NCBI RefSeq assembly: GCF_028009165.1
Contig: NC_079244.1
Location: forward strand, 4,650,001-4,714,000
Length of the DNA stretch: 64,000 nt
Source: Akanthomyces muscarius
Taxonomy: Eukaryota; Ascomycota; Sordariomycetes; Hypocreales; Cordycipitaceae
Direction: 5' to 3'
Below are positions 12,909-46,816 of this stretch, piece by piece. Both the position numbers and the translations under genes were made by a program. Below the pieces are notes generated by a model. That model saw only the letters and a program-made list of their open reading frames with translations, searched no databases and had not been told where the DNA came from. The number at the start of each line of letters is the position of its first letter. Within the stretch, counting starts at the first letter, position 1.

Positions 12909-13504
12909 GTCGTTCAGTGCAGGTCCGTGAAGCGGATAGTGTTTAGAGTCTTCGGACCTGGACAGATATTGCCGATTGCGGTGTGTCAGAGCCTTCAAAA
13001 TTCCACGGACGTTGGGAGCATGTTAACAATAGATTTTCTGAGGAAAAGGGAAAGTAGTTCGCAAGAAACAATCGTCGTGATTGAGGGACAATCATCATTG
13101 CTCTGAGACCTGGCGTTCACGGTAGTGGGACTGCTGCCTATCACACAATCGCGGCAGTTGTGTTAGGTAGTAATAAGTACAACTTGGAGAGAATTTGTTA
13201 AGGTTTTCGTCCCTTTTGATGATACCATTTGTCTATTTTAGTTTATTACCATTGACTACTTAATTAGTAGTCTCGGCAGCCTCCCGGGCTCCATAGTCTT
13301 CCACGGCTTTTAAGGTTCTGTGGCTGATTCAAATATTTAATATTTGCGCCAGCATGCACCTTGCAGGCGTAGGCACTCCTACAGAGTTACGGCTGTAAAA
13401 CTACTCGCCTGCAGGGTACATTACCACAAGAGACGATCCTATTCACAAAATTGTATCTTCTACACCAGACTGCCAGCTTTCAGACCTAGTTGCCCAGCAT
13501 CAGC
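12909..13504. other. divergent intergenic region
   Basis: Between the DUF4246 gene (minus) and the decaying gene (plus). AT-rich in the middle (13185-13275). No motif recognised. Confidence 0.5.
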
Positions 13505-17319: not shown

Positions 17320-18707
17320 CTACAAAAGGTTGACCAGCCAAGGGACGATGGCGCTGTGTGCGTGTTAGCGATTCTGCAATTCAAGGTCATGGCCGTCCCG
17401 TTTCAACTTACCCAACAGCAACCGTGGCACCAATTCCAATAAAGGCTCTGTTTCTAACCCTGTCCTTGCGCACCTCGGCGTCCGTCTTGGCCTTCTTCGA
17501 GCGTGGTTGCAGCTCTTTCGAGTCGGCCGTATCCTTCTTATCGGCGCCCTGCTCGACTGGGGTGATGTCGCTGGCCTTGCGCTTGCCCTTCTTCGACTCG
17601 GTCTTGGTGCCCGACTTTGCGGCCGCAGCCTTGTCGGCCTCCTTGGCGGACTCGACCTGCTCCTTGGCCGTCGCCATCATGGCGGCAATCTCTTCTGCGG
17701 TCGGGGGTTGGCCGGCCGTGGGCAGCGGAACCTCGATCTCGGTAACGGTCTGCTTCTTGTCGCTGCCCTTGGCGCCCTTGACAGGCTCCTCGACAATGTG
17801 GAGCTTGGCGGTGTCGTCCTCGGACTTGACGGGTTGCAGAACGACGGTAGGCTCGAAATCGGCGGCCTTGGGAACGCCAGATTCAGAATCACCGTCAACG
17901 GCAGCGGCAGCCTCCTTCTCAGCGGCAGCCTTGGCGGCCTTGGAGCTTCGCTTGCGGGGCGAGGCCGGAGCCTTCCTGCCGCTCGACTTGGCGGGGCTAA
18001 CGGAGCGTCGCGAGCGTCTCGAGGCACTGCCGGTGGCAGAAGCGGCGGGGGTCAGCAGAGGCTGGGTGGTCTTGCTCACGTCAAACCTGGGAGGAGCCGA
18101 GATCTTGCGGGTGGGAGACGAAGTCGAGTCGTTGTTCTGCGTGATGGTAATGTTGGCGGGGTCGAGCAGAGCGCGGATCCAGGGAGCAATCTGGTACTCC
18201 TCAGCGAGGGCCAGGGCTTGCTCCGGAGGGATCCAGATGTTGCCAGCCGTCTCCTCAGGGCTGGTGGTCGGCAGGGACTTGATGTACTTGCGCTCGGCCT
18301 CCTCGTCGGCGGCCTCGGCGTACGGGAAGGTGGCCTTGAACATGCCGGTGGCGGACACGTAGCCGTCGAAGCTGCGACGCATGAGGAAGTAGCTGGTGGG
18401 GCTCGACTTGAAGATGCCCGAGACGATGCCTTTTTGCATGGGAGCGCGAAGGTGGGCGTAGTCGAATGCACCGACGGTGGTGGGCTCGGCCTCGTCATCA
18501 TCGTCAGCCATCTTGGGCGTGAGCTTAGTCTGTCCGAGACGACGACGGGAGACGAGCTCGGTGTCTAGCAGTGGGTGGACGGTTAGCAATTGCGCGATCC
18601 AGGAGCTGTGGTCACCGGGGGAGGCGCCTGGACAGCGACCAACATTCGGGGATGTCCTCCATCATAAGCGGGTTGCGCTTGGCAGGAAGAGTTCGGGAAG
18701 AAGCCAT
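17320..18707 (-). CDS. bqt4: Bqt4-like inner nuclear membrane protein with APSES/KilA-N domain
   Basis: Three exons: 18707-18644, 18564-17412 and 17353-17320, giving 416 residues. Exon 1 gives [20 protein letters not shown], joined to [15 protein letters not shown]. An APSES/KilA-N DNA-binding-like domain covers about 55-165 ([54 protein letters not shown]). A long Lys/Ala/Ser/Glu-rich disordered linker follows (about 180-385). The short last exon completes a C-terminal hydrophobic segment, [20 protein letters not shown], ending at the stop: a tail anchor. This combination is that of fission yeast Bqt4, which sits in the inner nuclear membrane and ties telomeres and other partners to the envelope. 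The tail anchor depends on splicing the 58-base last intron (17411-17354). Confidence 0.88.
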
Positions 18708-21078: not shown

Positions 21079-22611
21079 TTACAATTCCAATTCGTCTAGA
21101 GCCTCGTAGATCAACTCCCAGGCTCGGGCAGGCAGCTCTCCAAACACCCAGCACGCGTTTCCATTATAGCTCCCCAGAGTGGTGACCCGCATCATGCCGT
21201 ACGAGTTTCCCGGAAGCGTCAGGAAGCACAGATCCGCCGTCCCGAGCCCGTTCCTCCTCGTCTGCGACTTTTCGCCCTGGCGCACGACGGCGGCGCTGAG
21301 GTCGACATCGATGTAGTTCGACAGCCGCACGAGGTTGTTGACGAGGATCGAGTCCTCCTCGTCGCCGTTGTCGGTCAGCGCCGTAATGTCCATGTCTGCC
21401 TTGATGGCGCTCAGGACCGTCCACAGCGACCTTGCAATGTTCTGCGGCACCGCAGCCTGCGCAAAGTTGTCGCGCTGCGCGAGCGCGATGGGCGCGATCG
21501 GTCCCGTGGCCGTCTCGTGAGACAGCGGCAAGGGCGACGGCAGGACCAGGTTCTGGCTGTAGATCCCCTCCGCGCCGCCCAGCTGCGGGACGAGCAGCCG
21601 CGCGTTGTAAATGTTCATCAGCTGCAGGGCCCGCGGCGCAGGCTGCGCCCGGGCAATCTGCCGCACAATCAGCCCCAGGAAGAGCTCGTCGAGCTGGTAC
21701 GTGGTCAAGGCGTCTTGGTCCTCGTCTGGGTTCTCCCGCGCGACCAGGTCCCGCATGCGCTCAAAGATGTGCAGCGGAACCCGAATGATGCGCTCCTCCA
21801 GGGCGGCCTTTGGCACGCGAGGCTCCTTGGCTGCTTTTGCCTGCCCCGGGAGGGTCACCAGCCCAAGGTCCAGGCACGAGTCGTCCTGCTGTGCCACCAT
21901 CTCGGAGAGGACATCCGTACGGGCGCCGAGCATGGGCAGCACCTCGTCTTCTCTCCCGTCCAGCACAAGCTCGAGAGATTTCATGAATCCCTGCAGGCCG
22001 GAGATGTCCCACGTGGAATGCGAAAACGTCACGGCCAGCACCGTCGCGTCGGTGAAGCCAATGACTTTAAACGATAATTGCGGCGCGTCCTTGTCTACTA
22101 GGTCCGCCATGGTGGTGGGAAACCCTGGGCCGAGGCCGCAGAGACGAAGGTCGTTCAGAGGCGGGCTGAGCGCAACTCCGTCATCTGACGTTTGGGGAAG
22201 CTGCTGTCCGAGTACGTGGTCGAAGATGCTCAGGTCGTGCGCTTCATGTGCAAACTGAATGGCGGGGCGCTCGGCCGTGAACTCATTGGGGACATGAATC
22301 TCGAGTGTTTTGCCAGCAAGGCTGCTTTCATTGCCATCCCCGCATAGGGCAGCACCTTTGTCCCCTTTGATTCTGAATCGGCCGCCTAGCTTTCGCCAGT
22401 CGTCGATTTCCAGCAGCTTGACGAGAGATGTTCTTATCTTCTCAGCATCGAGAATGTCGTTGAATCGTATGAAGAGGGTCAGGATGCAGTGCTGGTACTT
22501 GGCACCATCCAATGTATGCACAGGATAGATGCGGTCGTCCGCCTCGCCACGACTGAAAGACCGCCCATCGTCGCTTGGAGTTGGCTCAGGTGAGTACGTC
22601 GCGGTGGGCAT
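21079..22611 (-). CDS. BAHD-type acyltransferase, cluster gene 1
   Basis: Intronless, 510 residues. It belongs to the PF02458 transferase family of acyl-CoA-dependent acyltransferases. The N-terminal block VHTLDGAKYQHCILTLFIRF...SLVKLLEIDDWRKLGGRF is typical of the fungal branch. The catalytic HxxxD reads HSTWD at residues 198-202 and is intact. The second BAHD signature, DFGWG, is absent; the corresponding region reads LGSYNGNACWVFGELP near residue 490. The family transfers an acyl group from CoA (sometimes ACP) to a hydroxyl or amine. The gene is divergent from the PKS across 1.4 kb, so co-regulation is likely. A paralogue with the same N-terminal pattern lies at 35738-37312. Substrates are unknown. 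Confidence 0.88.
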   Translation of the reverse strand: MPTATYSPEPTPSDDGRSFSRGEADDRIYPVHTLDGAKYQHCILTLFIRFNDILDAEKIRTSLVKLLEIDDWRKLGGRFRIKGDKGAALCGDGNESSLAGKTLEIHVPNEFTAERPAIQFAHEAHDLSIFDHVLGQQLPQTSDDGVALSPPLNDLRLCGLGPGFPTTMADLVDKDAPQLSFKVIGFTDATVLAVTFSHSTWDISGLQGFMKSLELVLDGREDEVLPMLGARTDVLSEMVAQQDDSCLDLGLVTLPGQAKAAKEPRVPKAALEERIIRVPLHIFERMRDLVARENPDEDQDALTTYQLDELFLGLIVRQIARAQPAPRALQLMNIYNARLLVPQLGGAEGIYSQNLVLPSPLPLSHETATGPIAPIALAQRDNFAQAAVPQNIARSLWTVLSAIKADMDITALTDNGDEEDSILVNNLVRLSNYIDVDLSAAVVRQGEKSQTRRNGLGTADLCFLTLPGNSYGMMRVTTLGSYNGNACWVFGELPARAWELIYEALDELEL

Positions 22612-23991
22612 AATGGCGTAGAGTGGTGGGGATAATTATGTTATTTTTCTTTGCAGAGAAATAGCGTGTAGGTCAAAGAGTGATGATACTTGGTACTCAT
22701 CAAATATGTATGCATCAAAGCTTTGATAAAGACGACCTGGACAAGTGGAGTGGTAGAACAAAAGCAGGCACGGTCATGCTCGATAGTGACGTTTTCGCAG
22801 CCCAGAATGGGTTTCCAAGATCGAGATGAAAATGGCACATCTCGCGACCTATTGTTGGGACAGATCTCCAGCGGATGCACCGTTTCCGGCTGGCATCGCA
22901 AAAATATCCTCTCCGACGAACCTTTGCGCTAAACAATCTGAAGCCGCTGTCACGAAAACGTTAATCATCAGACGAAAACGGCTAAAACAAAAAAAGAGTT
23001 CACGCGCAGCAGCTGAATAACGCCGTCTTGGGAAACAATCGCCCTGTACGAACAATGCCGCATTCCTTCAACAAGTTAGTTTTGATTGGTCATTGTCGGA
23101 CTGCACAAGTACCTTGTACATGGCTGCTGAGCCTCAGGAACCCTTGTCTTAGCGCAATCTCGCCGCGTATACACTGCCGTTACCGCGGCTGTAGAAGTAC
23201 CCCCTAACCTTAATACCCTGATCTTGAGTGAGACCCCCGCCATGGCCCAGGCTAGTCAAGACTGGTACACACATATCTTGAATGCTGACAGTTATGCTTG
23301 TGGCGCTTTGCCCCAGTTCCGCTCGACGCTCGAAACACTTGTTCCAGCAGCACACCACGGTCGCCGAAGAATCTGAAAAAATCGAAAGAGTAGAGAAAGC
23401 TTCAATGATATGTCCCAAACCAGTAGACTAATGCTATACGAGGTGAAAACGCTTTCAAAGGCCCATAAAACGCACCAGTAGAGCAAGTTGCCCCGAAAAC
23501 CCCCGGCGGACAGTCGTGCGGCATACTTTGCACATGGCTGAATTGAGTAGCTGGTAAACTTTTGCTCTGGAATTTGGAATCTTGATTGAGCCACTGATCT
23601 GGTCTCATCGCGCAAACTTATTCCGCAATTGGCGAAGCGGATGAGCTGCAACCGGAAAATGTAGCACCTTTTGGGCACGACTGTACCTGAGCGACACCTG
23701 TTTCAGTCGTGAAATTTTCGCATTCTGCTGTCTACAGACGCGCTAGCCGCAGTTCGTTACAATGAATAGAGTTACGAGCATTACTTAAGTCGCCCCGGGA
23801 ATTCCCATACTTCATTGTTCTATTCTCGAAGAACGTCGGTGTGAACTGAGTGCCTCTTTGTGTCATTATTCTCCTTCCTGGGCTGAAAATTTCTTTTAAT
23901 CCGATCATTCTCACATAAATCACTGAGACACACATCTCTTAATACTTGATCCTTCCAATTCGGATACTTTGCTTCATCATTGCAGTTCAGC
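22612..23991. other. divergent promoter region of BAHD1 and the PKS
   Basis: 1.4 kb between two divergent cluster genes. No TATA box or recognisable palindromic operator was found by eye. Small open frames only. Confidence 0.5.
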
Positions 23992-26900
23992 ATGACTTCT
24001 GGGGACATTGCCATTGTTGGCATGGCATGCCGGTTCGCCGGCGATGCGAAATCGCCAGAAGAGTTCCACGAAATGTTGCAAAAAGGCAAGGACGCTTGGA
24101 GCAAAATACCGCCCGGCCGATTCAAGGCTGAAAACTTCAACCACCCATCCAAGGATCTCAGTGGAACCATGGTAAGGAATACCCATCCCTGGCCCAGATT
24201 CTGACCCCTGAGCTGACAATTGATTTCTAGGTCTGTGAGGGCGGCTACTACCTGGAGCAAGATGTATCTCAATGGGATGCACCTTTTTTTACCTGCTCAG
24301 CGTCCGAAGCGCGCTCCTACGACCCTCAGCAGCGTCTACTCCTCGAGGCGGCATATGAGAGTTTGGAAAACGCCGGCATTCCAATCGAAAGCATCGCCAA
24401 CACGGACGCCGCCTGTTTTGTGGGCGCATTTTCTGAAGATTACAAATCGATCGTGTCAAGAGACATACATGCCGCGCCGAAATACGCCAAGACGGGCACC
24501 GCTCTCTCGATTCTTTCCAACCGCATCAGCTGGTTCTAGTGAGTAAAGCGGCTGCAACAGCAATCCCGCAAACACTACTGACATCGGATAGCAACCTGCG
24601 CGGTCCGTCGGTCACCTGCGACACGGCATGCTCCAGCTCCATGGCCGCTTTGCATCTCGCCTGCGAGACGATACGATCAGACACCAATCCGACTCGTTGT
24701 GCGCTGGTCGGAGGCGCGAACCTCATCCTAGATCCAGATGACCAATGCGGGCTAAACGCACTTGGTTTCTTTAGCCCGGATAGTCGCTGCTTTTCTTTGG
24801 ATTCGCGAGCGAACGGCTATGCGCGTGGAGAAGGTCTAGGGATGCTTGTGCTGAAGCACATTGACGACGCGATTCGTGATCGCGATCCCATCCGGGCTGT
24901 CATTCGTGGCACCGGTCTTAACTCAGACGGCAGGGTAAGGCCCAGTATGACGCTACCTAAAATATTGGAAAAATACTAATGACGTGCTCTCTTTCTGTTT
25001 AGACCGCCGGAATCACTCTGCCGAGCGCAGAAGCGCAGGCGAGGCTGATAGTCAACACTTACAAGATGGCCAATCTAGACCCAGCCGACACCCAGTACGT
25101 TGAGCTCCATGGTACTGGCACAAAAGCCGGAGATAATGCAGAGGTTCGTGCGATATCCAATACTATCGCTGCGAACAGAAAGCAGCCCCTTTATTGCGGC
25201 TCGGTCAAGTCGAGGGTCGGGCACACAGAAGCAGCTGCTGGCATGGCGGCCATCATCAAGTCCGTCCTCTGCCTGGAAAAGGGTGTCATAACGCCCAATC
25301 TCAATTTCGCCACTGCAAATCCACGCCTCGGGCTTGATTCTTCCGGCATCATAGTGCCCACTTCCACCATCCCGTGGCCTGAATGCGAAGCGAGGAGGTG
25401 CTCGATCAACAACTTTGGCTTTGGCGGCACAAACGCACACGCAGTCATTGACGACGCGTTCAACTATCTGAGATTGCGAGGCAAGCTCCAGCAAGCCGAA
25501 GAGACCGAATCCGTTCAGCAGCCTCGTGTATTTGCGCTTTCGGCCCCGGAACAAGCGGCTACAACGCGGCAGCGCCATGCGCACGCAAACTACATTGAGT
25601 CCCGCGGTGATGATGCCAAGCTACGCAACATTGCTAGAACACTTGGCGAAAAGCGCTCGGTCTTCCAATGGAGACACGCCGTTGTGGCGGCGACGTCTCA
25701 GGAATTGCTGGCCTCATGGAGGGACGACACAATCAAGCCGGTGAAAGCCGGCAACTCTCCGAAGATTGCATTCGTCTTCACGGGACAGGGAGCCCAGTGG
25801 TATAAAATGGGCCGTGAGCTATTATGCTTCCCGGAATTTATGCGCTCGATCCGTCTGTCCGCAGAGCATCTGGCCGGCCTGGGCTGTGCATGGGATGCTT
25901 GGACAGAGCTCACACAGACCACGTCCGAACATGATTCAAAGGTCAATCAAGCAGAGTACTCGCAACCACTTTGCCTCGTACTTCAAATTGCGCTTGTTGA
26001 TCTTCTGGCCCATTGGGGGATCACACCCATGAGTGTAATCGGGCACTCCTCAGGCGAGATTGCGGCAGCCTATGCTGCTGGAGCTCTCTCAAGAGATGAC
26101 TGCCTGAGGATTGCGTATCACCGCGGCATCGTGTCTAAGCTAGCACAGATGCGAAAGCCTGGTGGATGCATGATGGCCGTGGGTAAGTCAGCAGAGGCCG
26201 TTGGCGCCTTTCTCGCGGCAAGTGGTGGTGCAGTTGTTGTTGCATGCATCAACAGCCCAGAAAGTGTCACCCTTGCAGGTGACAAACCGGCCCTGGAAAA
26301 GCTAAAGGTTGTCTTCGATGCGGAAAAGATCTTTTGCCGTCTTCTGCAAGTCGAGAATGCATACCACAGCCCGCAGATGCAGAGCGTCAGCGGCGACTAC
26401 CTGGAGGCCATCAAGAGCATTTCCCCCCTTGTTGCAACAACTTCTGTCGCGTTCTACTCCACAGTCCGCGGCCAGAGACTGCCACTTTCTGAGCTCACAG
26501 CTGAATACTGGGTTGAGAATCTGTGTTCCCCTGTCAGGTTCGTAGATGCTCTGGATGACATGATCTACGCGACTGGTACAGACAAGCAGCGCAAGGCCAA
26601 AGCTGACGCACCGAGCATGCTGTTTGAGATTGGGCCCCATTCTGCGCTCGCAGGTCCCATCAAGCAGTTCAAAGCAAGCCGTCATGCGCTGGAAAATTTA
26701 GCATATACATCTATGCTTGTGCGTGACAAGGACGCCTCGGTCACCGCGGTCAGTGCTGCGGCTAACTTGTGGACGAGCGGAGTGGCCGTGAAGCTGGACA
26801 AGGTGAGAGAACGAAACGCGTGCAATCGGCGAACTTTATGCTAATATGGTACATCAAAAAGGTAAATAATGTCAGTGCGGCTGTCGAGACTTTGACAGAA

Positions 26901-29900
26901 CTGCCAACTTATCCTTGGAATCACTCAACGTCCTACTGGCACGAAACCCGGCAGTCAAAGAACCACCGCCAACCTGGGTTCGCCAGACACGATCTGATTG
27001 GCGCAAGAATCGACTCCTACAATCCCATCGAGCCTGTGTGGAAGAATTATCTAAAGCTTTCCAATTTACCTTGGCTTCGTGATCACCAGATCCAGGGCGA
27101 CATTGTTTTTCCAGCGGCGGGCATGATTTGCTCCGCTGTCGAAGCTGCACGACAAATTGCTGCCACCGAGAGCTCTGGTGAAGCTATTTTGGGGTTTGAA
27201 CTACGCGAACTCTCGGTCGCAAGAGCTTTGGTCATTCCTGACAACGAAATGGGAATAGAAGTCTACGTCAACCTGAAGCGCCGAAAGACGGGAATGGGCA
27301 GTGGCGTCGGAGCCTGGTTCGAGTTTTCTTACTATTCCTGCCAAGATAACGACACCTTTGTCGAACACGCTGCGGGCTTACTGCAGATCCAATATCGCAA
27401 AAAGGAAACCGAGATCGACCAAGGGAAAGAAACGAGAGAAGAAACCCTGGCTCACAATAGACGATGGGAGTCGAAGAGGGCGCTGTGCCTTGACAAGGTC
27501 GCCAGGTCAAGCCACTACAACTTCTGCAAGGAGCAGGGTCTTCAATTTGGTAACTAAGAACTCCCCAATATTATTTGCCAGACACTAATTTCGAGATATT
27601 AGGCAAAACTTTCCAAGGCTTGCGCGGTGCCCACCAGAACGGATTGACAGTTGCTTTCGATATCGGCATTGTGGATACACGTGCATGCATGCCTGCGTAT
27701 CATGAAAGTGACTACCTCATGCACCCTGCCACACTTGACGCTGTCTTTCAAGCTATGATGATTGCAGTTCCCATGGCCGAGGACGTTGAGAAACAAGTTT
27801 GGGTCCCTACAGGTGCTGCGTCCATGTTCATATCGAACGAAATAAATCGAAGTCATGGAGCAACATTGCAGGGACTGGCTGAATCATCGCAGACAGGCGT
27901 CCGAGAAATGATGGCATCTGTGCTTGTAAAAGACACACAAGACCAAGACTCTGCTCCTGCTGTCATCATTGAAGATTTCAGATTCACGGGCTTGGGGTCA
28001 ACCCAGAAATCCACGCAATCGTCCGACGCACTGGCCTCGAAGCTATACTCTGCTCCTGTCTGGAAGCCAGACGTGGATCTAATTGACGCCCAGACCCTCC
28101 GAAGCATGAGTGGTGTCATGGATGATGCCAATGGCATGGTGAGGTACTGTTCAATGGCCAACAGCCTCCTCAAAGAAATTTGCAAAGCTTCGCTTGCGCA
28201 TCTCGCGCCGATTATCAATGCTTCGTCGCCTCCTCACCTTCTCAAGCTAGCAGACTGGATGCACAGACAATGCAGCCACAATGAGACGGGTATCGTCACT
28301 CCAGTGGACAGCCCTGACAGCTGCGATGAGCGGACGAAGTTGCTCGACCTGCCAAACTTGCCTGGTATTCACAGCTTCATCGAGCACTATCCCATCGACG
28401 GTCAGCTTGCTCTGCATGTCTATCGTGCGCTAGGTGCAATCTACGCAGAGGAAACAACTCCAATTGCCACTCTACGACAGGATGATCTGCTCAACAAAGC
28501 ATACCAAGAGGTATACGGCCTGCAGACTCACGTCGAGCTCATGAAAACATGGTTTGAGCTCAAAGCGCATAAGCAGCCAGCACTTCGAGTTCTTGAAATC
28601 GGTGCTGGTACAGCGTCTACCACCCTACCGGTTCTGCAGCAGCTGAGCCAGACAGGGAGCGACACGCCAATGTTCTCTTCATGGACTTTCACCGACATAT
28701 CAGCGGGTTGGTTTGAGAACGCGAAGGGCCTGCTGGCAGACTGGAAAGGTCGAGTTGAATACAAGGTATTGGACATAGACACTGACCCTGTCGAGCAAGG
28801 CTTTGATGCTGGTTCATACGATGTTGTATTGGCAGTCAATGTATGTACAAATACCAACATAGCGCGACTAATGACACCGGACACATGCTTACTTCAATAG
28901 GTACTTCATGCAACAAAGAACATTGGCACAACGCTTCAGCACTGTAATACGTTGCTCAAGCCTGGTGGCAAGCTTGTTCTAGGTGAATACACCAACCCGA
29001 ATGACTTGGCCAACTTTGTATTCGGAATCATGCCTGGATGGTGGGCTGCTGAAGACGACCGCAAGACCGGTCCTTTACTGCTTCAGTCTCAGTGGCACGA
29101 GTCACTCTTGTCTGCTGGCTTCTCCGGTGCCGACATGTCGATTGCCGACAATGACGACCCGATTGCTCACAGAATGTCCACAATCATCAGCACAAAGCCT
29201 CGCGAGGAGTCCTCCAAGAATATGGTTGTCGTTATCCCCCAAATCTGCAGCGATTCGACCAAGAAGCTTGCAACCAAGATCTGTCGCCAGCTCCAGCAGC
29301 ATGGCCATGGAGGAATCGTGATGAGCCTCGCGGCTGCGGCACTCAAAGCAAAGGACAAGTCAATCGTGTCTCTCTTGGACTATGAGTCCCCGTTCTTTGC
29401 AGATGCCTCAAAGACGGAGTTTGAAGACGTTCAATCTCTTCTCCTGCACAGTGACGAGCTTTTGTGGGTTACGAGATCTGGACTGCAAGAGACGCCCAGT
29501 CACCCAATGAAGCGCATGATATCCGGCCTGATGCGTTGCATCAAAATGGAAGACTCATCGCGCTCACTGTACGAGCTCCACTTGTCACGTCATTTGGATG
29601 AGGATGTGGAATCGACGAGCACCACTGTTTGCAAGAGGCTGCAGACGATTTGGGAGGCCGCTGGCGATGAAGCTGTCGAGGAAATGGAGACTGAAGAGAA
29701 GAACGGCCGCTTTTACATTCCACGTCACATGCCTTGCAAAGCCATGAATGACAGCCTGGCTCGCGCAACTCAGGCTGTTGCACCGACGGCGGAGCTTGGT
29801 GCTCTTGTGCAAGAGAATCGGCCCTTGAAACTCACCATTGCCCATCCAGGCATGCTCGACACACTTAGATTCGTCGATGACGACCGCGCGCTGAAACCTC

Positions 29901-32233
29901 TTGGAGAGTTTGAAGTCGAGATTGAAGTCAGAGCTTGCGCACTGAACTTTCTGTAAGTACAGCAACACGAATACAGTGGTTTGACTCAACTGACCACTAG
30001 TTAGCGACATCATGATTGCAATGGGCCAGATCCAGCGTCAGGTGTTGGGTCACGAAGCATGCGGAACAGTGAACCGAGTAGGCTCAAAGGTCTCCGAAGT
30101 AAGCTGTGGCGACCGTGTGGTCTTTGTTGGACCTGGATCTATGAGAACTCATATTCGAGCCCACGAATCTGTCGTTCAGAAACTGCCCGACAGCCTGACA
30201 TTTTCTGAAGCCGTCTCCGTACCGATTGCCTATGCCACTGCGTATCGATCTCTTGTAGAGGTCGCTCGATTGGAAAAGGGCGAATCCGTTCTTATTCACG
30301 CCGCAGCCGGAGGTAAGACTTCCAACCCTTTTCAATACGCAGCCTTACTAATCCGACTTTTTTAATGCAGGCTTGGGTCAGGCGCTCATCCAGATTGCCA
30401 AAATGCTAGAAGCAGAGATATACTGCACGGTCGGCTCTAGCGAGAAGAAGGCGACAGTTGTCTCCTTAGGCGTTGACCCAGACCGAGTTTTCAGTTCCCG
30501 TGACCTCTCGTTTGCCAAAGGCGTAAAGCGCATGACAGACGGTCGGGGCGTCGACGTCGTTGTCAACTCTTTGGCTGGCGAGGCTCTCCGCCAGAGTTGG
30601 AACTGCCTTGCGCCTTATGGTCGCTTCATCGAAGTTGGCAAGAAAGATATTCTTGGCAATAGCGGCCTCGAGATGCAGCAATTCATCCACAACACTGTGT
30701 TTGCGGGTGTTAACCTTGAGGCCATGATGATTGAACAACCTGTACGGTGCCGCAAAGTTGTGGCCAAGGTGTTCAAGCTCTTCGAAGACGGACTGATTGA
30801 CTCCATAAAGCCCATCGTGGTGCGTGATTTCACGGATGTGGAGAGCACATTCCGTGACATGCAACGTGGAGCTCATATCGGAAAACTTGTTCTCGAGGTA
30901 ACGCCCTCATCACAAGTACCCATTCTTCCAAGAGTGGAGGTGCCTTTTACTCTTGATGCAGACGCAACATACTTGCTCGTCGGAGGTCTTGGCGGACTCG
31001 GTCGAGCTCAGGCAGTCTTTCTGGCGGACAATGGGGCTCGACACATTGCATTCATCTCCCGATCAGGAGACGCAAAGCCAGAGGCCAAAAAGTTGCTCAG
31101 CACTCTTAATGCGTCGGGGGTTGAGGCCAAATCATACGCTGGTGATGCGGCCAACGCACATGAGATGAAGCTCATAATTGATGACATCTCGCGCAGTATG
31201 CCACCCATCCGCGGCGTTATCCAAGGCGCCATGGTGCTTGCAGATAGCCTGTTCCACAGAATGAGCCATGAGCAGTGGGAGGCTGCAACGAGGCCGAAAG
31301 TGCAAGGTACATTGCTCTGCAAATTGAACTTGAACAGAATATGGCATTAACACAAAGTCTAGGTACCTGGAATCTTCACGAACTGTTGCCCAAAGATCTC
31401 GATTTCTTCATAGTTCTCTCATCCCTTGCTGGTATCATTGGCTCCGTGTCGCAAGGAAACTATGCAGCCGGAAATACTTTCCAAGATGCACTTGTGCATT
31501 ACAGAAGAAGCAAGGGTCTTGCTGCTCAAAGTCTTGACATTGGTGTTATGACGGGCATTGGCTATGTCGAAGAGCACGACGACGCTCGCGCAAGAACGAG
31601 CCAGCTGCGAGTGGTGCGTATTAAATCCCGCTGACATGGTTATTTGCGAGTGACTAACAGAACGATAAACAGACAAGCCTCGGAGAAAAGCAGTTCATGC
31701 ATGCTCTGCGGAGTACTCTAGCTGGTAGCGTTGACGGCGACAAGGCGCCCATGCCGCAGATTCTTGTCGGCGCAGGCAGCGGAGGAATCCAGCAGCTGGT
31801 CAAAGAAAAAGATGCAAGTGCCGACTTTTACTGGCTGCGGTCGCTGGCTGCATTCTCCTATCTTCAGCAGATGGATGTCCAGAGCCAAGATCTGGAAAGT
31901 ACCGAAGGCCAGGACGAGGCAAGCAAGCTGGTGTCGGAGCTGAGGCTCTCCAAGACCATGGATGAGGCAAACGATGTGGCGCAGCGGCTTTTGGTCTCCA
32001 GAATCGCGAAGCACATATCCATCCTTGCCGGCGACATCAGCACGAGCAAGCCGATACACGCATACGGTATTGACAGTTTGGTGGCGGTAGAGCTGCGCAA
32101 CTGGCTGTCGATGGAGCTGAAGAGCGAGCTGACAATCTTTGACTTGACTGGCAGCGATCCGATAAGTGAAGTGAGCAAAAAGATTGCCAGCAGATCAAAG
32201 CTCGTCACCACAGATGCTAAGACGTCTGGCTGA
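23992..32233 (+). CDS. highly reducing polyketide synthase (KS-AT-DH-cMeT-ER-KR-ACP)
   Basis: Eleven exons: 23992-24171, 24231-24538, 24592-24934, 25003-26802, 26862-27549, 27603-28840, 28901-29952, 30005-30312, 30371-31306, 31363-31613, 31673-32233; about 2554 residues. KS: DTACSSS (Cys176), ELHGTGT (His313), VGHTEAAAG (His351). AT: GHSSGE (Ser626). [13 protein letters not shown] (His952) and [10 protein letters not shown] (Asp1152). cMeT: EIGAGTAS at 1438-1445, where the usual motif has GTGG. ER from about 1834, with HAAAGGLGQA for NADPH binding. KR: GGLGGLG near 2175, catalytic NYAAGN (Tyr2318). ACP: YGIDSL (Ser2503). All catalytic residues except the altered methyltransferase motif look intact. 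No thioesterase, reductase or carnitine-acyltransferase domain follows the ACP, so release must be in trans. The product would be a mostly saturated, possibly methylated chain; its length is not predictable. Confidence 0.93.
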
Positions 32234-32802
32234 GGTCACTTGTATATGTTTCTCATTTTCTTATGCTTTTGGGACAGCTATTTGTGGAGGAGCAGCCCAG
32301 GCTGGTCAGGGATTCATTGCGTTGGGCTTGTATTCGTTGCGTCGCGCGGCTGCTAATTATGTTTTTATTCTATATTTGATAAGGCAAACAAGTTCTATTT
32401 ATCTTCTTACTTTTTGTTCTATTGTTCCAAGTTGCTTGCCCCCGCCACTCTTTGTTGGAGGCTCCCTGAGCAGAATGTCATGACAACAACTAGCTGACAG
32501 TTGCGCAGCCCTGCAAGACAAAAGTAGAGCTTCTTACCGTGATGTGGCATTGCTTCACTGTCTTGTGGTGTTAATCACCTGAAGATCGAATGATTCACGG
32601 GCTTCACTGTTGGCAAGGGATGCTTTCGTAGTCTTTGCACAAAATTATTTATTGGAACTGAGTTTAACAGATCTTGTAGAAAGCTCTTGATTGCGTTTTC
32701 GATTCCTAGTGGCAGTGTTGGCAGTGCCAACCATATAACGCGCTGTTTTTATAATTGCGAATGGGCTGTTTGCGCTATGTCAGGGGACATGGCCAGCAGA
32801 AG
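32234..32802. other. convergent 3' region between PKS and acyl-CoA ligase
   Basis: AT-rich 3' UTR sequence of two convergent genes. Nothing else seen. Confidence 0.5.
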
Positions 32803-34802
32803 TTATTGCATCTTCGACAAAAACGCCATATACTCCTCGATCGCAGGCCGTAACCGACGATAGTCAATCTTGCCACCCTGTGTCAGCGGCCACTTTTGAA
32901 ACCCAACTGCTCCGAGGCTGGCAGCGCCCTCAATGCGATGTGCCCAGCCAAGTTTTCGGGCAACACAGTCTTGAATATCGGCAGGTGAGGTGGAAAGAAT
33001 CTCGTCTTCAAAAATCGCAAATATTCCCGCATCGCCGCGGCTTGAAGTAATATTCACAACCGCAGTCTATGGGTCAGAACAGAATGTATGTCAGCGCATG
33101 TTTTAGTCTGCGAAGCGACCAGCTTAGGAGAATCATTATAACATACCGAGGCTCCATGGTATTCAGTCTCCAGAAAATTTTCAACAGTGCAAGGGACGAC
33201 GATCTCGTTATCCCGCCTGAGCGTGTACTCACTCCGGCCGAGCACATGCAAAAAACCCTCTTCACTAATTACGGCGTCGTCGCCAGACACAAACCAGCGA
33301 CGGCCGTCCTCGCCCTCATAAAAGCAGCCGGGCCTGTCACCGGCGCCCAGGTAGTTCTCGATGACTGAGTTCCCACGGATGTGCAGGGAGCCAACCTCGC
33401 CGCGAACCACGGGCCGCCTGCCATCTGCACCGATGACCTTGAGCGCCGCGCCGGGGGCCACGACGCCAGAGGCGGCGATTCCGCGCCACGCGTGCATCTT
33501 GTCGATCGTCGGTGGCCGGTACCAGGCGGTCCATATCGCGACACCCGCGGCCTCGGTCATGGCAAAGGTGGGCAGCACCCGGGCCGAGGGAAACGTCTGC
33601 TGCGCGACGCGGAGAATCGCCATGGTGACCGTCGACCCGGTCAAGTTGACAAAGCGGACCGACTTGATGGCGTCGGGCGAGTAGTTGGGCGCGCGGGCAA
33701 TCGACTTGACCGCCGTGACAAGAAGCGAGAGCGACACGGGGCGGCACGTCCGCAGCGTCTCGAGGATCGTCTCGGCGCTCGACTCGCCGGCGTCCATGAC
33801 GGCGGCGTTGCCCGTCGCCCACGAAAAGATGGTCAGCGCCTGGCAGCGCGACTGGCTGCTGACCCCGGAGACGACTGCGACTGGAGCCGGCAGGAGCGGC
33901 GTGTGTTGCTTCGACAGGAAGTCGAGCGCGGACAGCACGTAGCCCGCCGACATTGGGCAGCCCTTTGGCTTGCCGGTCGAGCCGCTGGTGCACACCACAA
34001 AGGCGGCGCGCTTGGGATGCTCGCGCTCGTCTGGCATGGCCGCGATGGCCTCCATGTAGTCTGGACCCTGCGACGCCGTCTCTGCTGCAATGTCTGCCAT
34101 GCTAATCCAGCCGCTTGGCGGGTCCGCCGTGAACTTTTCCAGGCTGATGCCGACGGCGATGTTCGTGTACACACTGCCGGCCACGTGCCGCGCCTCCGCC
34201 TCGGTGGTGACGACAATGACGGACGGGACCAGCGCCTCGATCTGGGCCTGCAGAAGCTTGTTCCCTGCCTTTAGGGCGTCGTTGGGGAGTGTCACGGCGG
34301 TATAGCGGTTCAGCGCCGACGCGGAGAGGAGCAGCGCCCACTCCGCCGACACACCGCTGAAGAAGACGGCCGTCGCGCCGGGCTGCACGCCGCGCCGGCA
34401 CCGCAGGAACGCGCAAAGCCGGATGGTCGCTCGCTGTAGCTCCGCAAATGACCATAGGAGGTAGGATGCTTCGGCGGCAGGCGCGGGTATGGGTAGGATC
34501 CATGACAGCAGGTAGTTGAGGATGCAAGCCGGTGAGGTGAGTTTGCGAATGGTGCGTGTCTCACGACCATCGCCAATAGCATTGGTGGTGTTGTTTCTGC
34601 TGCTACAGTCATCGTTTTGGCCCTTTCTCGTCGGCCAAGGCCGAACCAGCTCCTCGAGCAAGTTCGCTGGCTGGCCTGGGGATAGAATCGCAGGGCGGTC
34701 CGGGTCTATGCTGGCGCGCTGGTTCAACGCCTCCCAGAGTGATTTGAACGTAGGATTCGGTGCCGGCTTGCCTTCGACGAAAGCAAGCATGTCGGCCGGC
34801 AT
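32803..34802 (-). CDS. AMP-dependent acyl-CoA synthetase/ligase, cluster gene 3
   Basis: Two exons, 34802-33147 and 33066-32803, with an 80-base phase-0 intron joining GAS to TAVVNITS; 639 residues. ANL-superfamily adenylation motifs in order: VCTSGSTGKPKG (residues 270-281, phosphate loop), FAMTEAAG (A5), GRRWFVSGDDAV (A7, GDD instead of the usual TGD), GRSEYTLRRDNEI (A8 hinge, diverged from the usual GR-KD-IK form) and LTQGGKIDYRRL with the C-terminal catalytic lysine. Residues about 52-112 form a poorly conserved insert with a hydrophobic CILNYLLSWILPI segment. The enzyme would activate a carboxylic acid as acyl-AMP and then acyl-CoA. In fungal clusters lacking a PKS release domain such ligases usually hand a polyketide acid to an acyltransferase or NRPS. 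Divergent from BAHD2. Confidence 0.88.
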
Positions 34803-35737
34803 TTTCTAACTCGCAAGTCTCGAACTTGCAGCCTCACGATGCGTTGGGCAGGTCCTCCCGGGAGCTAGTCGTGAGTATAACGGTGCAGGTCTTTGTACTC
34901 GGCGAGGTCATTGTTTTAGCTTTTCTCATTGTGTGTATCAGTTGGGCCATCGATGGCTCACTGTCGTTTAATGGCAGGCTCTATCTAGCCAGAAGTGGCA
35001 GCATGGAGAGATTTACCTTAACGACGATCAAAGTCCAGAGAGAGTTTACGACGAATACAGCAAACCCACCTGTCATCTAAATTGCGATATGCACCCGGCC
35101 AATTTGATGACTTGAACAAAGATTAAACCTTGAGATGTGTGGATTAAGTCCTATCTACACATACTGGAACGTAGATCTTACCCGCAACTACGTTAAGTTA
35201 TAGTTTGCAACCGTGGAAACTAAACATTGGATGAAAACGGCCAAAATTCCCCCCACACAAAGAATGGCTGAAAACTCTGCACCCTTTATTTGGCCATCAG
35301 GGAATGAAAGCAATTGTCAAGTGCTATGGAAGTACTGATATGAGAGGTTTCGAAGACTGATCAACTTCCTTCGCTGCTGTGGCTCCGGCGCCTTAATCCT
35401 CAGTGTCTCAGTGCGAAGTGTGGCTCACTGTAAAACTCATAATGAGACAATTGCCAGTGGCGACCTGATGGAATGGAGAAAAAAAGGCTAGCATGTTTTC
35501 GTTCATGCTTTGCATTTTTTTCTCGATAGGAAACAAAAGATGCAGTCGCGATAAATTAAGCTTTCCGAAGACTTACATGCCAATGCCAATCCGCAAGCGT
35601 CCTCCAGTTACCGACATTTAATACTGTACAGCCCAAACACAAAACTCGCATCATAATGTCTGTGTCTCTGATAATATTGCTGCAATTTTCTCAGACCATT
35701 TTTTCTTTTACTCGTTTGCGATATCCGCTTGTTCGAG
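34803..35737. other. divergent promoter region of acyl-CoA ligase and BAHD2
   Basis: 935 bases, AT-rich toward the BAHD2 side. No motif recognised. Confidence 0.5.
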
Positions 35738-37312
35738 ATGAAAGCTGTACGGCAGTGGCTTTTCGCCGCTGAGGCTGTCAACGACAAAAAGTCTATAGTG
35801 GATGAGCCCGATGTGTATCCTGTGCATTCGCTCGATCGCATGGCAGAATACCAAAAGTTCGTGGCAACAGTCATGTATTTCAACGACGCGCTTGACGCCG
35901 ACATGCTCAACGCGTCTTTGGTGAAGCTACTTGAGACTGGCGACTGGAAAAAATTAGGAGGCCGGCTGAAGAAAGACGTAAGTACTCAGACATGACAGGC
36001 TCAGTAGACGAGTGCTCATCCCCTCCAGGTCAACGGTCGGCTGCAGTTACATGTGCCGCCTAGGTTTTCTGCTGAGCAGCCAGCAGTTGCATACACCCAC
36101 GAATGCCTGACGGAAATGAAAATCAGCGACCACCCCGTAGCAAAATCGTTACCGACTCACACGCACGTCCCTTCTTTGCAGCCCTTGCCAGAGCGTGGTG
36201 CGCTCCGGACGTTGCAAGTTCGCCCAGATTTTCCTGCGTCATTGGACGACTTGATGGCAGAGGACCTGCCTCCGCTCTCATTACACGTCCATACATTTCA
36301 AGATGCAACGGTCGTCGGCCTTTCTTGGCCACACCTTCTGATGGACGGCGTGGGGCGGTCGGCGTTGATGAAGAGTTGGTCGCTTGTCATGGCTGGCCAG
36401 GAAGACAAGGTGCCTCCTGTAGCAGGCGCCCACCACGATGTTCTTTCTGGCTTGCCTGCTGGCGCCAGTGACCAGGACGAGTTCTTTGCCAACAAGGGCC
36501 TTTTGCGCGGCGTGCGGCTAGCCAAGGTCCTCCTATACTGGGGATGGGCGAAGCTGGCCGGCCCTGGTAAGGTCATTCGAAGCATGTACTTGCCAAAAGA
36601 AATATATGATATGCTGGTGGGCGGTATTAAAGAACAAGTTTCTCAGGTTCAGGGACAAACTGGCACAAAGCGCTACATAAGCGAATCCGACGCCATCACG
36701 GCTTGGGTTACGCGGCAGGTAGCTTTGTCGGAACCCCGACCGAGGCCCGTGACTATTATGAGCCTCTTCAACGGACGATATGCGCTAAAGCAGCATCTTA
36801 ACCCGGATGCTGTGTACCTGCAGAACATGGTCCTGATCAACTATACAACGTTGTCTGCAGAAGAAGCTCGCGACGCCGTCGCCCCGCTCGCCCTCGCCTG
36901 CAAAGCTCAGCTCAGCGAGCAAACTAGCGAGTCCAGAGCTCTCGGTTTTATACAATGGATCAGCAAGCGAGTCGACAAGACCAAGCACACGGTACCTTTA
37001 TGCGGCGGCGAAGATTCTGTTCTGCTCTGCTGCAACTCATTGATCAGGGCCGACCTCATCAGAGAGACGCGCTTCGCTCCTGCGGTGCTGCGTGCCGGAG
37101 AGGCTGCGGAAACGAGACGCAACCCTGCTGGCTCAATGATAAATTTCTTTTATGGCCTTCCAAATGAGCCGACGCAATTTATCAATGGATTCAATATACT
37201 TGGCAAAGATCACAGCGGCGGAACTTGGTTCGCAGGCAATCTAGCGCCGCAGGTATGGGAGGCTCTAGAATACGAAGTGAAGCAATTGGGAGAAGGGAAA
37301 AGCAGCTCATAG
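35738..37312 (+). CDS. BAHD-type acyltransferase, cluster gene 4
   Basis: Two exons, 35738-35977 and 36029-37312, with a 51-base phase-0 intron; 507 residues. The ATG at 35738 is the first in frame. Same family as the 21079-22611 gene: YPVHSLDRMAEYQKFV, FNDALDADMLNASLVKLLE and GDWKKLGGRL closely parallel that protein. The catalytic HxxxD is HLLMD at residues 182-186, inside SWPHLLMDGVG. DFGWG is missing; the region near 485 reads HSGGTWFAGNLAPQVWEAL. The C-terminus is short and polar. The similarity of the two cluster acyltransferases suggests duplication followed by specialisation for different donors or acceptors; this is inference. Immediately followed by the ICMT-like gene in the same direction. 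Confidence 0.9.
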
Positions 37313-37910
37313 GTATTGAGTCGTCGTGTTTTTGATGTAGCTATCATACTGTTGTTGCCCTTGTCTACAGGACCTAATCGAGGCAATGGTGTCCTGCTGT
37401 ATAGTTTCTCCCGGTCTAAATAGCGCACATGTGTCCACCAGTACCTCTGCCAAGAGCGGTACAATAGGAAGTTGTTAAACTCAAACCTACTCGTGGACTT
37501 GGTGGGCCTTTTAAAAACTTGCATTCCTGTTGGCTGTCACCAATGAGGCCTTTGTCTGCGTTACGTCCGTCTACTTGCAGGGCGGTGTGTCTTGCCAAGT
37601 TGCTCGCTCCAACATGAAAATAAACATTATAGAAGAATCTTTTGAAAACAGTCTAAGCTTTTGAATACTAAACTCAATCGCACAGCAAGTTCCACGGAAC
37701 AATGTCCTACAGAATAGCACCTTCAGCCTGTCGCCGGATTTGGCACCATGCTACAGACACTCTCAAAACGTATCGACGCACCGCATGCGGCACGTCATTC
37801 CTCACAGAGACGAAGTGAATAAAAGCATCAAACTTCGTCTGTCTCTTCACTTACCTCGTGCATCTCATTTTATTCAAAGGCCATTGTGCAAGTTTGCCCC
37901 TAGTGAAGCA
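37313..37910. other. intergenic between BAHD2 and the ICMT-like gene
   Basis: Same-strand spacer of about 600 bases. The ICMT-like frame is open through much of its right part; an earlier in-frame ATG at 37785 could extend that protein by 42 residues. Confidence 0.5.
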
Positions 37911-38621
37911 ATGCAAGAATACTCTATCATCAGCCGGCTCACCTTTTCCGCGGCGGTCCTCACCTCGGGCCTTCTCACCGCGCGCGCCCTAATCCCACCC
38001 AACCGCATATCAGCAGGTCGTGCCTGGGGCAAGGACTATCTAAAGGCCTCGAACGCCACGTCTTCTGTTCTGCGCAACGTCGTTCTCGTCTCTGGCCTGG
38101 CGGTGTACTATGCCGCGCTCGCCGTGAGCCCGCCGGCGGTGGTCGCCGCCCTCTGTCCCGCCGAGGGGACCGGACAGCGCAACCCGTCGCTGTTCGCTTG
38201 GAATGCCGTCACGGGGCTCTCGCTCTTGTTCATTCTCGCCGGCGCACTGCTGCGCAGGATGGCGTACAGCCACCTCGGCCGGAATTTCACTTTTGGGCTG
38301 GCCAAGCCGCATGGGCTGGTCACGAGCGGCATCTACAAGTACATGCAGCACCCGAGCTACACAGGACTCGCGCTGATAGGGGCGGCTTATTATCTTGTTT
38401 TCTTCAGGTTTGACGGTGCTGTGGCTTGTTTTGTGTCGTCGCGATACTGGCCGCTCGTGCAGGGCTGGAGCGCGGTGGTGTATGCCGTCACTGGGCTGTG
38501 GCTGACAATACTGCTGGGTGTGAGGGTGGTGCAGGAAGAGACGATGCTCAAGGAGTTGTTTGGCAAAGAGTGGGAGGAGTGGCATGCAAAGACAAAGAGG
38601 TTCATTCCTGGTATTATTTGA
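37911..38621 (+). CDS. ICMT-like membrane methyltransferase, cluster gene 5
   Basis: Intronless, 236 residues from the ATG at 37911, chosen because it starts just before the first hydrophobic segment (ISRLTFSAAVLTSGLLTA). Four or more membrane segments can be seen: about 8-25, 53-80, 100-120 and 155-210. The conserved cofactor-binding C-terminus of the isoprenylcysteine carboxyl methyltransferase/PEMT group is clear: LVTSGIYKYMQHPSYTG and, near the end, EETMLKELFGKEWEEWHAKTKRFIPGI. Such enzymes methylate a carboxylate or amine at the ER membrane using S-adenosylmethionine. The gene sits at the right edge of the cluster in the direction of BAHD2. A tailoring role is plausible, but it might be a neighbour with its own job. 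Confidence 0.85.
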   Translation: MQEYSIISRLTFSAAVLTSGLLTARALIPPNRISAGRAWGKDYLKASNATSSVLRNVVLVSGLAVYYAALAVSPPAVVAALCPAEGTGQRNPSLFAWNAVTGLSLLFILAGALLRRMAYSHLGRNFTFGLAKPHGLVTSGIYKYMQHPSYTGLALIGAAYYLVFFRFDGAVACFVSSRYWPLVQGWSAVVYAVTGLWLTILLGVRVVQEETMLKELFGKEWEEWHAKTKRFIPGII

Positions 38622-39513: not shown

Positions 39514-40420
39514 ATGGCTTCCCACGACGACGACACCATGCCCGAGGAGACGCAGGGCTACAAGCTCTCCCAGCCAAAGCAGTCCCTCGCCGAGTACGAA
39601 AAGATGGGTAAGTGATACAAGCGACGTGCTGCAGTAGCCGCAACTGCATTTTACATTTTACGCTCAGAGACAAGCTGTAGGCGCATGATGCGCTCCTCAA
39701 TTGACTTTCTCGAGCTTTCCCCGCAATGCCCCTCCTCCTCCTCCTCCTGCTGCATTCCCGGCTAACAAAAAAACCTCCCAGATGCTGGCGACGAGTCCCT
39801 CCAGCGCTACAAGCAATCCCTCGGCCTCGGCGGCGGCAAGGACCTCTCCGACCCCTCGGACTCCCGCGTCTGCATCATCCTCTCCCTGACCATGGATTCG
39901 CCCGGCCGCGCGCCCGTCACCATCGACCTCTCCCAGCCCGGCAGCGAGACCTCGCTCAAGGACAAGCCCTTCAAGATCAAGGAGGGTGCCAAATTCACCA
40001 TGAGCGCCCAGTTCAAGGTCCAGCACGAGATCCTCAGCGGCCTCCACTACGTCCAGGTCGTCAAGCGCAAGGGCATCCGCGTCTCCAAGGACTCGGAGAT
40101 GATTGTACGCGGCGGCCTCATCCCCCTTCTCCCTTTTTGCGAGATGCGTTGGACACCTGCTAACTTGCCACACAGGGCAGCTATGCTCCCAACACCCAAA
40201 ACCAATCTACCTACACCAAGAAATGTACGCCGGAAAATACCACGCACGTGCTTCTGTTGCCGCAAGCCACTAACACACCTCTCGTGCAGTCCAAGAAGAG
40301 GAGGCTCCCTCCGGCATGCTCGCGCGCGGTCACTACAACGCCGTCTCCAGCTTCGTCGATGACGACAAAAAGACTCATCTCCATTTCGAGTGGAGCTTCG
40401 ACATTAGCAAGGACTGGTAG
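39514..40420 (+). CDS. rdi1: Rho GDP-dissociation inhibitor
   Basis: Four exons: 39514-39607, 39782-40104, 40176-40224 and 40290-40420; 198 residues. The N-terminal arm contains [17 protein letters not shown] and the [12 protein letters not shown] segment that binds Rho switch regions. The immunoglobulin-like domain follows: [64 protein letters not shown], then the ending [14 protein letters not shown]. It extracts prenylated Rho, Rac and Cdc42 GTPases from membranes and holds them in the GDP state. All four introns junctions keep frame, with the micro-exon of 49 bases coding [17 protein letters not shown] conserved housekeeping gene that marks the right side of the metabolite cluster. Confidence 0.95.
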
Positions 40421-45677: not shown

Positions 45678-46816
45678 TTACTGCTGCTGCTGCTGCTGCT
45701 CCAGGAGCTCGTCGTCATCCTCCTCCTCCTCGTCGGCCTGGGCGTAGTCGGGCTCGGGGACGGCCTCGCGGACAATCTCCATGCGCTTCTTGAGGCGGTA
45801 GGCGATGGCGCGCTTGCGGGCGGTGGCGTTTTGGGTAAAGGCAGCCGAGCCGCCAAAGGGGCCGGCGCCGGCGCCGTTGCGGACGCGGACGATGCAGACG
45901 TTCTTGGCGTCGCCGACGGTGCCCTCGCAGGTCATGCCGGCGGGCATCTTGACCTGCAGGGGGAAGTCGGTGTTTGTGGCGAGGGAGAGGCCCTGGATGC
46001 CGAGGCCGGGGACGTCCTGGACGACGTCGGCCTTTTGGAAGGCGCTGGCGTCCTTGCCGCCCGAGGTGCCGTCGACGTCGGCCGTCAGGGGGCCGGCGCC
46101 GTCCTGGTTGATCTGGCGGTAGACCATGCTGACGACGCCGTTGCTGTCCGAGGTGGGCAGGCCCTGCGAGGTGCCCATGCCGGCCGTGTCGGCGACCATG
46201 CTCTCGGCCTTGAGGTTGCTCTTGGTGCCGCCGCCGCCGCCGGCACCGCCGAGGAGGCCGCCGAGGCCGCCGGCTGCACCGCCTTTCTTGGCACCGCCGG
46301 CTGCACCACCAGCGCCGCCGGCAGCACCGCCGGCACCGCCGAGGAGGCCGCCAAAGAGCTGGCTGAGCTGGCGCTTGCGTTCCTCGTGGCGCTTGGCCGC
46401 GCCGGCGGGGAGGCCGCTGAGGTCGTCCTCCTGGCCGACGGCGCCCGAGGCGCCGTTGTTCTTGGGCGAGGTGTTGCTGGCGCCCATGAAGCGGGCAATG
46501 TTGACGGCGGGGTCGACGGGGCCGGTGCCCTGGGTCTTGCCCAGAGGGCTCTTTTGCATGTCGCGGTTGCGGATGATGGAGGTGTCGGCCTGCGAGCCGC
46601 AGCCGTTGGAGGAGCAATCGCGAGGAGTGCCGTCAGTGACTGGTGGAATGTGGTTAGCAGGGCTTCTTGTGGGATTGAGACGAGCTGTGGGTGTGGGAGT
46701 AGGTACGTACTGCTCAGACCGGGCATCATGACGCCGTTGTCACCCTTGATCATGGTGACGACCCCGTGGGCCGAAGCCACGGAGACGAGGGCAGCGTAGG
46801 CAAAGGCGTAGCGCAT
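45678..46816 (-). CDS. Egh16/Gas1/Mas3-like secreted protein
   Basis: Two exons, 46816-46711 and 46639-45678 (GTACGT donor), 355 residues. The signal peptide MRYAFAYAALVSVASA is followed directly by His17-Gly, so the mature protein would start with histidine. The Egh16-like family (GEgh16, Magnaporthe Gas1/Mas3, appressorium-associated) is recognised from HGVVTMIKGDNGVMMPGL, PRDCSSNGCGSQADTSIIR and the later SDSNGVVSMVYRQINQDGAG and MTCEGTVGDAKNVCIVRVRN blocks. An inserted Gly/Ala-rich low-complexity stretch covers about residues 132-172, after basic KRHEERKR. The C-terminal tail is acidic (DEEEEDDDELLE) and ends in six Gln coded by a CAG array. Family members are secreted during host or surface contact. 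Strong GC bias in the repeat region. Confidence 0.88.

What the first reader, a model, noticed from the sequence alone, without database searches (positions are those of the whole stretch)
21079..38621. Compact five-gene HR-PKS cluster between housekeeping genes
Seen: a complete highly reducing PKS, two BAHD-type acyltransferases, an AMP-dependent acyl ligase and an ICMT-like methyltransferase, with Bqt4 on the left and RhoGDI on the right. No NRPS, P450, MFS pump or regulator lies inside. Known: PKS + ligase + acyltransferase sets (for example in emericellamide and beauveriolide pathways) hand a polyketide acid to an NRPS. Inference: here, without an NRPS, two acyltransferases may esterify or amidate a small acceptor, making this a candidate undescribed lipid- or ester-type pathway.
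Basis: partly seen in the sequence, partly recalled or inferred. Interest (0 to 1): 0.78.

Follow-up and report, generated by a model that had tools for sequence, protein, structure and literature searches.

The report
Uncharacterised fungal polyketide gene cluster
A fungus carries five neighbouring genes that probably build a reduced, methylated carbon chain and attach it to another small molecule; the chain-maker and one attaching enzyme also occur together in some other moulds, but the product is unknown.

Summary
At 21079-38621 of a fungal genome (closest named kin Akanthomyces lecanii) lie an intact 2554-aa highly reducing PKS (11 exons; KS-AT-DH-MT-ER-KR-ACP, no thioesterase), two divergent BAHD-type acyltransferases (HxxxD kept, PF02458 below cut-off), an AMP-dependent ligase and an ICMT-like methyltransferase; no NRPS, P450, MFS pump or regulator was found between them. 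By contig-length matching, PKS and BAHD1 share a contig in five named genera (5 of the 8 nearest PKSs; consecutive locus tags in two); ligase and BAHD1 share three unnamed contigs; BAHD2 and ICMT linkage is untested. Best reading: BAHD1 lifts the chain from the PKS onto an alcohol or amine; the divergent pair ligase-BAHD2 adds a further CoA-activated acyl group. Every reaction, the acceptor, product and expression are unproven. HR-PKS release by esterification without an NRPS is already published (treconorin, luteodienoside), so this is an orphan member of a known kind of pathway. In the PKS tree three Aspergillus rows nest among Hypocreales rows, which would fit transfer between orders; the BAHD1 tree does not settle it.

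The parts
21079..22611 (-). BAHD1: BAHD-fold acyltransferase, 510 aa, single exon, HSTWD at residues 198-202
   Evidence: H and D invariant in 27 of 27 aligned sequences
22612..23991 (.). Intergenic region shared by divergent BAHD1 and PKS
   Evidence: no shared 10-mers above chance with the other divergent region
23992..32233 (+). Highly reducing PKS, 2554 aa, exons 23992-24171, 24231-24538, 24592-24934, 25003-26802, 26862-27549, 27603-28840, 28901-29952, 30005-30312, 30371-31306, 31363-31613, 31673-32233
32803..34802 (-). AMP-dependent acyl ligase, 639 aa, exons 34802-33147 and 33066-32803; TSGSTGKPKG, MTEA, SGDD, GRSE and GGKID motifs present
34803..35737 (.). Intergenic region shared by divergent ligase and BAHD2
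35738..37312 (+). BAHD2: second BAHD-like acyltransferase, 507 aa, exons 35738-35977 and 36029-37312, HLLMD at residues 182-186
37911..38621 (+). ICMT-like methyltransferase, 236 aa from Met 37911 (frame open from 37665); membership in the pathway untested
17408..18589 (-).
39766..40359 (+). Right flank: RhoGDI exon

Best explanation
An orphan fungal secondary-metabolite cluster made of two divergent gene pairs. Module 1 (PKS + BAHD1): the HR-PKS builds a reduced, C-methylated chain held on its ACP; it has no thioesterase and is emptied by BAHD1, which passes the chain to a hydroxyl or amine of a small acceptor. Module 2 (ligase + BAHD2): the ligase turns a free carboxylic acid into its CoA ester and BAHD2 transfers that acyl group to the same product. 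The ICMT-like enzyme may methyl-esterify a carboxyl or may be only a neighbour. Shown by sequence: intact catalytic motifs, BAHD fold of the BAHD1 model, contig linkage of PKS with BAHD1 in five named genera and of ligase with BAHD1 on three contigs. Inferred: every reaction, the pairing of ligase with BAHD2, the acceptor and the product.
Against: No expression, metabolite or enzyme data. BAHD2 and ICMT co-conservation untested: the two-row BAHD search listed no BAHD2 of A. lecanii, so it seems to have drawn on BAHD1 alone. No ligase hit shares a contig with the Aspergillus PKS or BAHD1, so the ligase may not be needed everywhere. Contig matches are 5 of the 120 PKS hits listed; among the 8 nearest, A. 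parasiticus, A. pseudonomiae and Hirsutella rhossiliensis have none (90% clustering could hide the two Aspergillus cases). No PKS named for A. lecanii was listed although its ligase is 99% identical; unexplained. Two ICMT paralogs (54%, 49%) elsewhere in the genome make that gene less specific. No shared promoter words above chance. DFGWG is absent from both BAHD proteins, and both fall below the PF02458 cut-off.
Confidence: 0.45

Rival explanations
1. Only PKS + BAHD1 form the pathway; ligase, BAHD2 and ICMT are independent neighbours or a lineage-specific add-on.
For: PKS+BAHD1 recur in five named genera while close ligase hits are few (11) and 8 of them show no shared contig with BAHD1; ICMT has two close paralogs; a 67% ligase paralog on C3 has no KS hit near it and no long PKS frame in the 40 kb listed.
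Against: Ligase stays with BAHD1 on 3 contigs, one at 56%/66% identity; BAHD2 is a homologue of BAHD1, 32%.
Confidence: 0.22
2. Emericellamide/beauveriolide-like shuttle: ligase and acyltransferase hand the chain to an NRPS encoded elsewhere in the genome.
For: Same PKS domain order plus ligase plus acyltransferase as in the emericellamide, beauveriolide and scopularide clusters (passages of PMC7471007 and PMC4515620); in scopularide the PKS lies 19 kb from the NRPS.
Against: No NRPS found within the five-gene interval; two acyltransferases instead of one; none of the names shown for the 120 listed PKS hits points to these pathways (names are sparse). NRPS genes elsewhere were not tested.
Confidence: 0.13
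3. BAHD1 is not a transferase but a structural or programming partner of the PKS, as plant CER2/GL2 BAHD-fold proteins are for ketoacyl-CoA synthases (role recalled).
Against: Catalytic H and D invariant in 27 of 27 aligned sequences; matches to active transferases are as good or better.
Confidence: 0.07
4. The BAHD enzymes only decorate (for example acetylate) a product that the PKS releases by itself as lactone or acid.
For: The only PDB sequence matches of the BAHD1 profile are three trichothecene 3-O-acetyltransferase sequences (E 7e-7).
Against: PKS-BAHD1 adjacency without P450 or oxidase to create sites for decoration.
Confidence: 0.13

Closest known systems
Emericellamide, beauveriolide and scopularide clusters
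   Same: HR-PKS KS-AT-DH-MT-ER-KR-ACP + CoA ligase + acyltransferase (passages seen)
   Different: They include an NRPS that receives the chain; one acyltransferase, not two; no ICMT-like gene in the passages seen
Treconorin (tre) cluster
   Same: HR-PKS emptied by a separate enzyme that esterifies the chain to a small acceptor, no NRPS (passages seen)
   Different: TreC is an alpha/beta hydrolase; has P450s and a glucosidase; acceptor is trehalose
Luteodienoside A (ltb) cluster
   Same: HR-PKS chain released as an ester of glucinol (passages seen)
   Different: Uses a carnitine acyltransferase domain fused to the PKS, not a free BAHD enzyme
PapA5 (polyketide synthase associated protein 5) of Mycobacterium tuberculosis
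   Different: Bacterial, 10% identity in the aligned part, different PKS partner
Mannosylerythritol-lipid acyltransferases Mac1/Mac2
   Same: Two fungal acyltransferases placing acyl chains on one small acceptor; Mac2 has a solved BAHD fold, Mac1 keeps HxxxD (passages of PMC10619693)
   Different: Fatty-acid donors instead of a PKS chain; no PKS in the system (recalled)

Membership tests
Fungal highly reducing PKS | KS, AT, DH, (MT), ER, KR, ACP in one chain with catalytic residues | tested here: met
   all domains and motifs present; MT motif I reads GAGTAS, as in 6 of the 8 nearest relatives
Fungal highly reducing PKS | Enzymatic activity and product | not testable with these tools
   sequence only
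BAHD acyltransferases | BAHD two-domain fold | tested here: met
   BAHD1 only, by predicted model; BAHD2 only by 32% identity to BAHD1
BAHD acyltransferases | HxxxD catalytic motif | tested here: met
   H198/D202 and H182/D186; invariant in 27 of 27 for BAHD1
BAHD acyltransferases | DFGWG motif (recalled) | tested here: not met
   absent from both proteins
BAHD acyltransferases | PF02458 above curated cut-off | tested here: not met
   18.8 and 18.7 bits against 22.7: divergent
AMP-dependent acyl ligase | PF00501 above cut-off and C-terminal Lys motif | tested here: met
   PF00501 114.5 bits for window exon 1, 115 for the RCEF 1005 protein, cut-off 29.9; GGKID at residue 616 (motif role recalled)
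ICMT (protein-S-isoprenylcysteine O-methyltransferase) | NCBIfam equivalog cut-off | tested here: not met
   58.4 bits against 160; PF04140 is above its own cut-off, 42.8 against 24
Emericellamide/beauveriolide-type cluster | NRPS in the cluster | tested here: not met
   none found inside 21079-38621, and the gaps (1380 bp at most) are too short for one
Emericellamide/beauveriolide-type cluster | Orthology of PKS, ligase, acyltransferase to Eas/Bes proteins | not tested
   reference sequences were not on hand
Conserved five-gene cluster | All five genes co-occur in other genomes | tested here: inconclusive
   PKS+BAHD1 and ligase+BAHD1 yes on some contigs; BAHD2 and ICMT untested

The most novel reading that the evidence does not exclude
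BAHD1 is a dedicated trans-acting partner of this HR-PKS lineage: either a free-standing BAHD enzyme that offloads a fungal HR-PKS (possibly the first shown), or a programming subunit that sets chain length or methylation, as CER2-like BAHD proteins do for ketoacyl-CoA synthases; and the pair has crossed between fungal orders as one unit.
Probability: 0.2. Interest if true: 0.65.

Novelty: new member of a known kind. Interest (0 to 1): 0.36.

Why it matters
If right, it gives a small set of genes in which to ask how a fungal HR-PKS without a thioesterase is emptied, and a searchable signature (HR-PKS next to a divergent BAHD gene, whose relatives are sometimes deposited as 'LysR family regulatory protein' or 'transcriptional regulator') that annotation can hide. 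The patchy spread over several ascomycete genera makes it a test case for transfer of biosynthetic gene pairs between orders.

Tried and rejected
Pseudogene or frameshift in the KS region: the stop inside the KS match is explained by introns; the junctions align with relatives. Truncated ligase C-terminus (the ORF stops at 33054): explained by an 80-nt intron, as in the deposited A. lecanii protein. Common regulatory words: 4 shared 10-mers between the two divergent promoters, mean 4.0 in random pairs, 143 of 288 random pairs reach it: nothing. Literature: locus tags of relatives (0 papers), gene combination (3 papers, 36 papers, 25 listed), Akanthomyces PKS clusters, ICMT-like methyltransferases in clusters (360 papers, 15 listed, none holding the ICMT term), sordarin acyltransferase (12 papers, 5 listed, sdnR in none). 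No description of this cluster was seen in these listings, but I opened only five papers (passages each), and the library holds open-licence papers only. None of the 25 papers listed holds both 'BAHD' and 'highly reducing polyketide'. BAHD1 alone against PDB sequences gave nothing; the 27-row profile gave TRI101. In the fold comparison, families not listed are not excluded. NRPS genes elsewhere in the genome were not pursued. Metagenome, viral and prokaryote collections were not scanned.

Full report
What is there. The window is bases 4650001-4714000 of contig C4 (4856708 bases) of a 36.19-Mb, 12-contig genome. The ligase is 99% identical to a protein named for Akanthomyces lecanii RCEF 1005, so the host is A. 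lecanii or a near relative (Cordycipitaceae, Hypocreales). Gene models give five genes between 21079 and 38621: BAHD1 (minus), HR-PKS (plus, 11 exons), ligase (minus, 2 exons), BAHD2 (plus, 2 exons) and an ICMT-like methyltransferase (plus). They form two divergent pairs, BAHD1/PKS and ligase/BAHD2; PKS and ligase meet tail to tail.

Conserved linkage. No other fungal genome could be opened here, so I compared the 'longest contig' lengths printed for hits of three separate searches: ligase, BAHD and PKS. Equal lengths are taken to mean the same contig. A check: the window's own BAHD1 (P0024) shows the length of C4. PKS and BAHD1 share a length in Aspergillus bombycis, Lecanicillium saksenae, Purpureocillium takamizusanense, Mariannaea sp. 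and Talaromyces proteolyticus: 5 of the 120 PKS hits listed, all 5 among the 8 nearest. In the first two the locus tags are consecutive. The other three of the 8 are A. parasiticus, A. pseudonomiae and Hirsutella rhossiliensis; the database shows one contig per 90% cluster, which may hide the Aspergillus cases. Ligase and BAHD1 share a length for 3 of the 11 close ligase hits (P0001-P0011; 4 of these bear a name, all fungi). The ligases of Nannizzia gypsea (55%) and L. saksenae (47%, on a 4750-base contig) were not linked. BAHD2 could not be judged: the search with the two-row alignment listed no close BAHD2 kin (best 42%, P0040), not even one of A. lecanii, so its words seem to have come from BAHD1. 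ICMT was not searched for.

Evolution. In the PKS trees the window's PKS is sister to that of L. saksenae (support 100), and the three Aspergillus PKSs sit in a set with Mariannaea, inside Purpureocillium, with Talaromyces outside. Holding the four Hypocreales rows (order of the relatives recalled) together is rejected (lnL 274 lower, p-AU 7e-74), but I named that group after seeing the tree and used LG+G4. The BAHD1 tree (6 of 16 inner branches firm) neither confirms nor denies it. Transfer between orders, or old duplication with losses, would both fit.

How it likely works. The recurrent PKS-BAHD1 partnership, a PKS without a thioesterase and a BAHD fold with invariant catalytic residues point to BAHD1 as the enzyme that moves the finished chain from the ACP to a hydroxyl or amine. 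The ligase, head to head with BAHD2, would make a CoA ester for BAHD2 to use. Both steps are inferred. The strongest rival is that only PKS and BAHD1 belong together. An NRPS encoded elsewhere remains possible, as in lipopeptide pathways where ligase and acyltransferase are proposed to shuttle the chain.

Comparison with what is known. Treconorin (TreC, an alpha/beta hydrolase, esterifies the HR-PKS chain to trehalose; passages) and luteodienoside (a fused carnitine acyltransferase domain uses glucinol; passages) show that HR-PKS release by esterification without an NRPS is established. Fungal BAHD-type enzymes acylating one small acceptor twice are known from mannosylerythritol lipids (passages). 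From memory, azaphilone pathways also use acyltransferases that take HR-PKS chains; I did not check their family. So the cluster is an uncharacterised member of a known kind; a free BAHD enzyme as HR-PKS offloader would be the new element if shown.

Limits. Three protein searches were allowed; each scored about 8000 candidates and one search listed 120 of 1087 hits. No PKS named for A. lecanii was listed there, which is unexplained (a split gene model is possible). The promoter comparison was negative. Nothing here shows expression, product or activity.

Noticed in passing
G000:C3:1775026-1777030 (L010, L025, L026): A 67% paralog of the ligase; about 160 bases downstream lies a relic reading as the end of a carrier domain followed by the start of a KS domain. 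In RCEF 1005 both are part of one annotated 715-aa protein, P0004. Looks like a ligase left behind after loss of a PKS or hybrid synthase.
   Followed up: partly
PKS trees: Aspergillus PKSs nest among Hypocreales PKSs, which would fit transfer of the PKS+BAHD1 pair between orders.
   Followed up: partly
one search hits P0029, P0040: Relatives of these divergent BAHD proteins are deposited as 'LysR family regulatory protein' (P0029) or 'transcriptional regulator sdnM' (P0040), a misleading annotation.
   Followed up: no
No PKS named for A. lecanii RCEF 1005 among the 120 listed, although its ligase is 99% identical to the window's.
   Followed up: no
window 45678-46559 minus: Egh16-like family gene.
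   Followed up: no
window 49588-50903 minus: Pieces of a Fungal_trans_2 transcription factor about 11 kb right of the cluster, beyond RhoGDI and a calcineurin-like phosphoesterase.
   Followed up: no
window 5687-6529 minus: Nucleotidyltransferase-like ORF with an AadA C-terminal domain match.
   Followed up: no
window 10674-12998 minus; 2533-3924 minus; 57971-60226 plus: DUF4246 protein, Nuf2 and importin-9-like protein: ordinary flanking genes.
   Followed up: no
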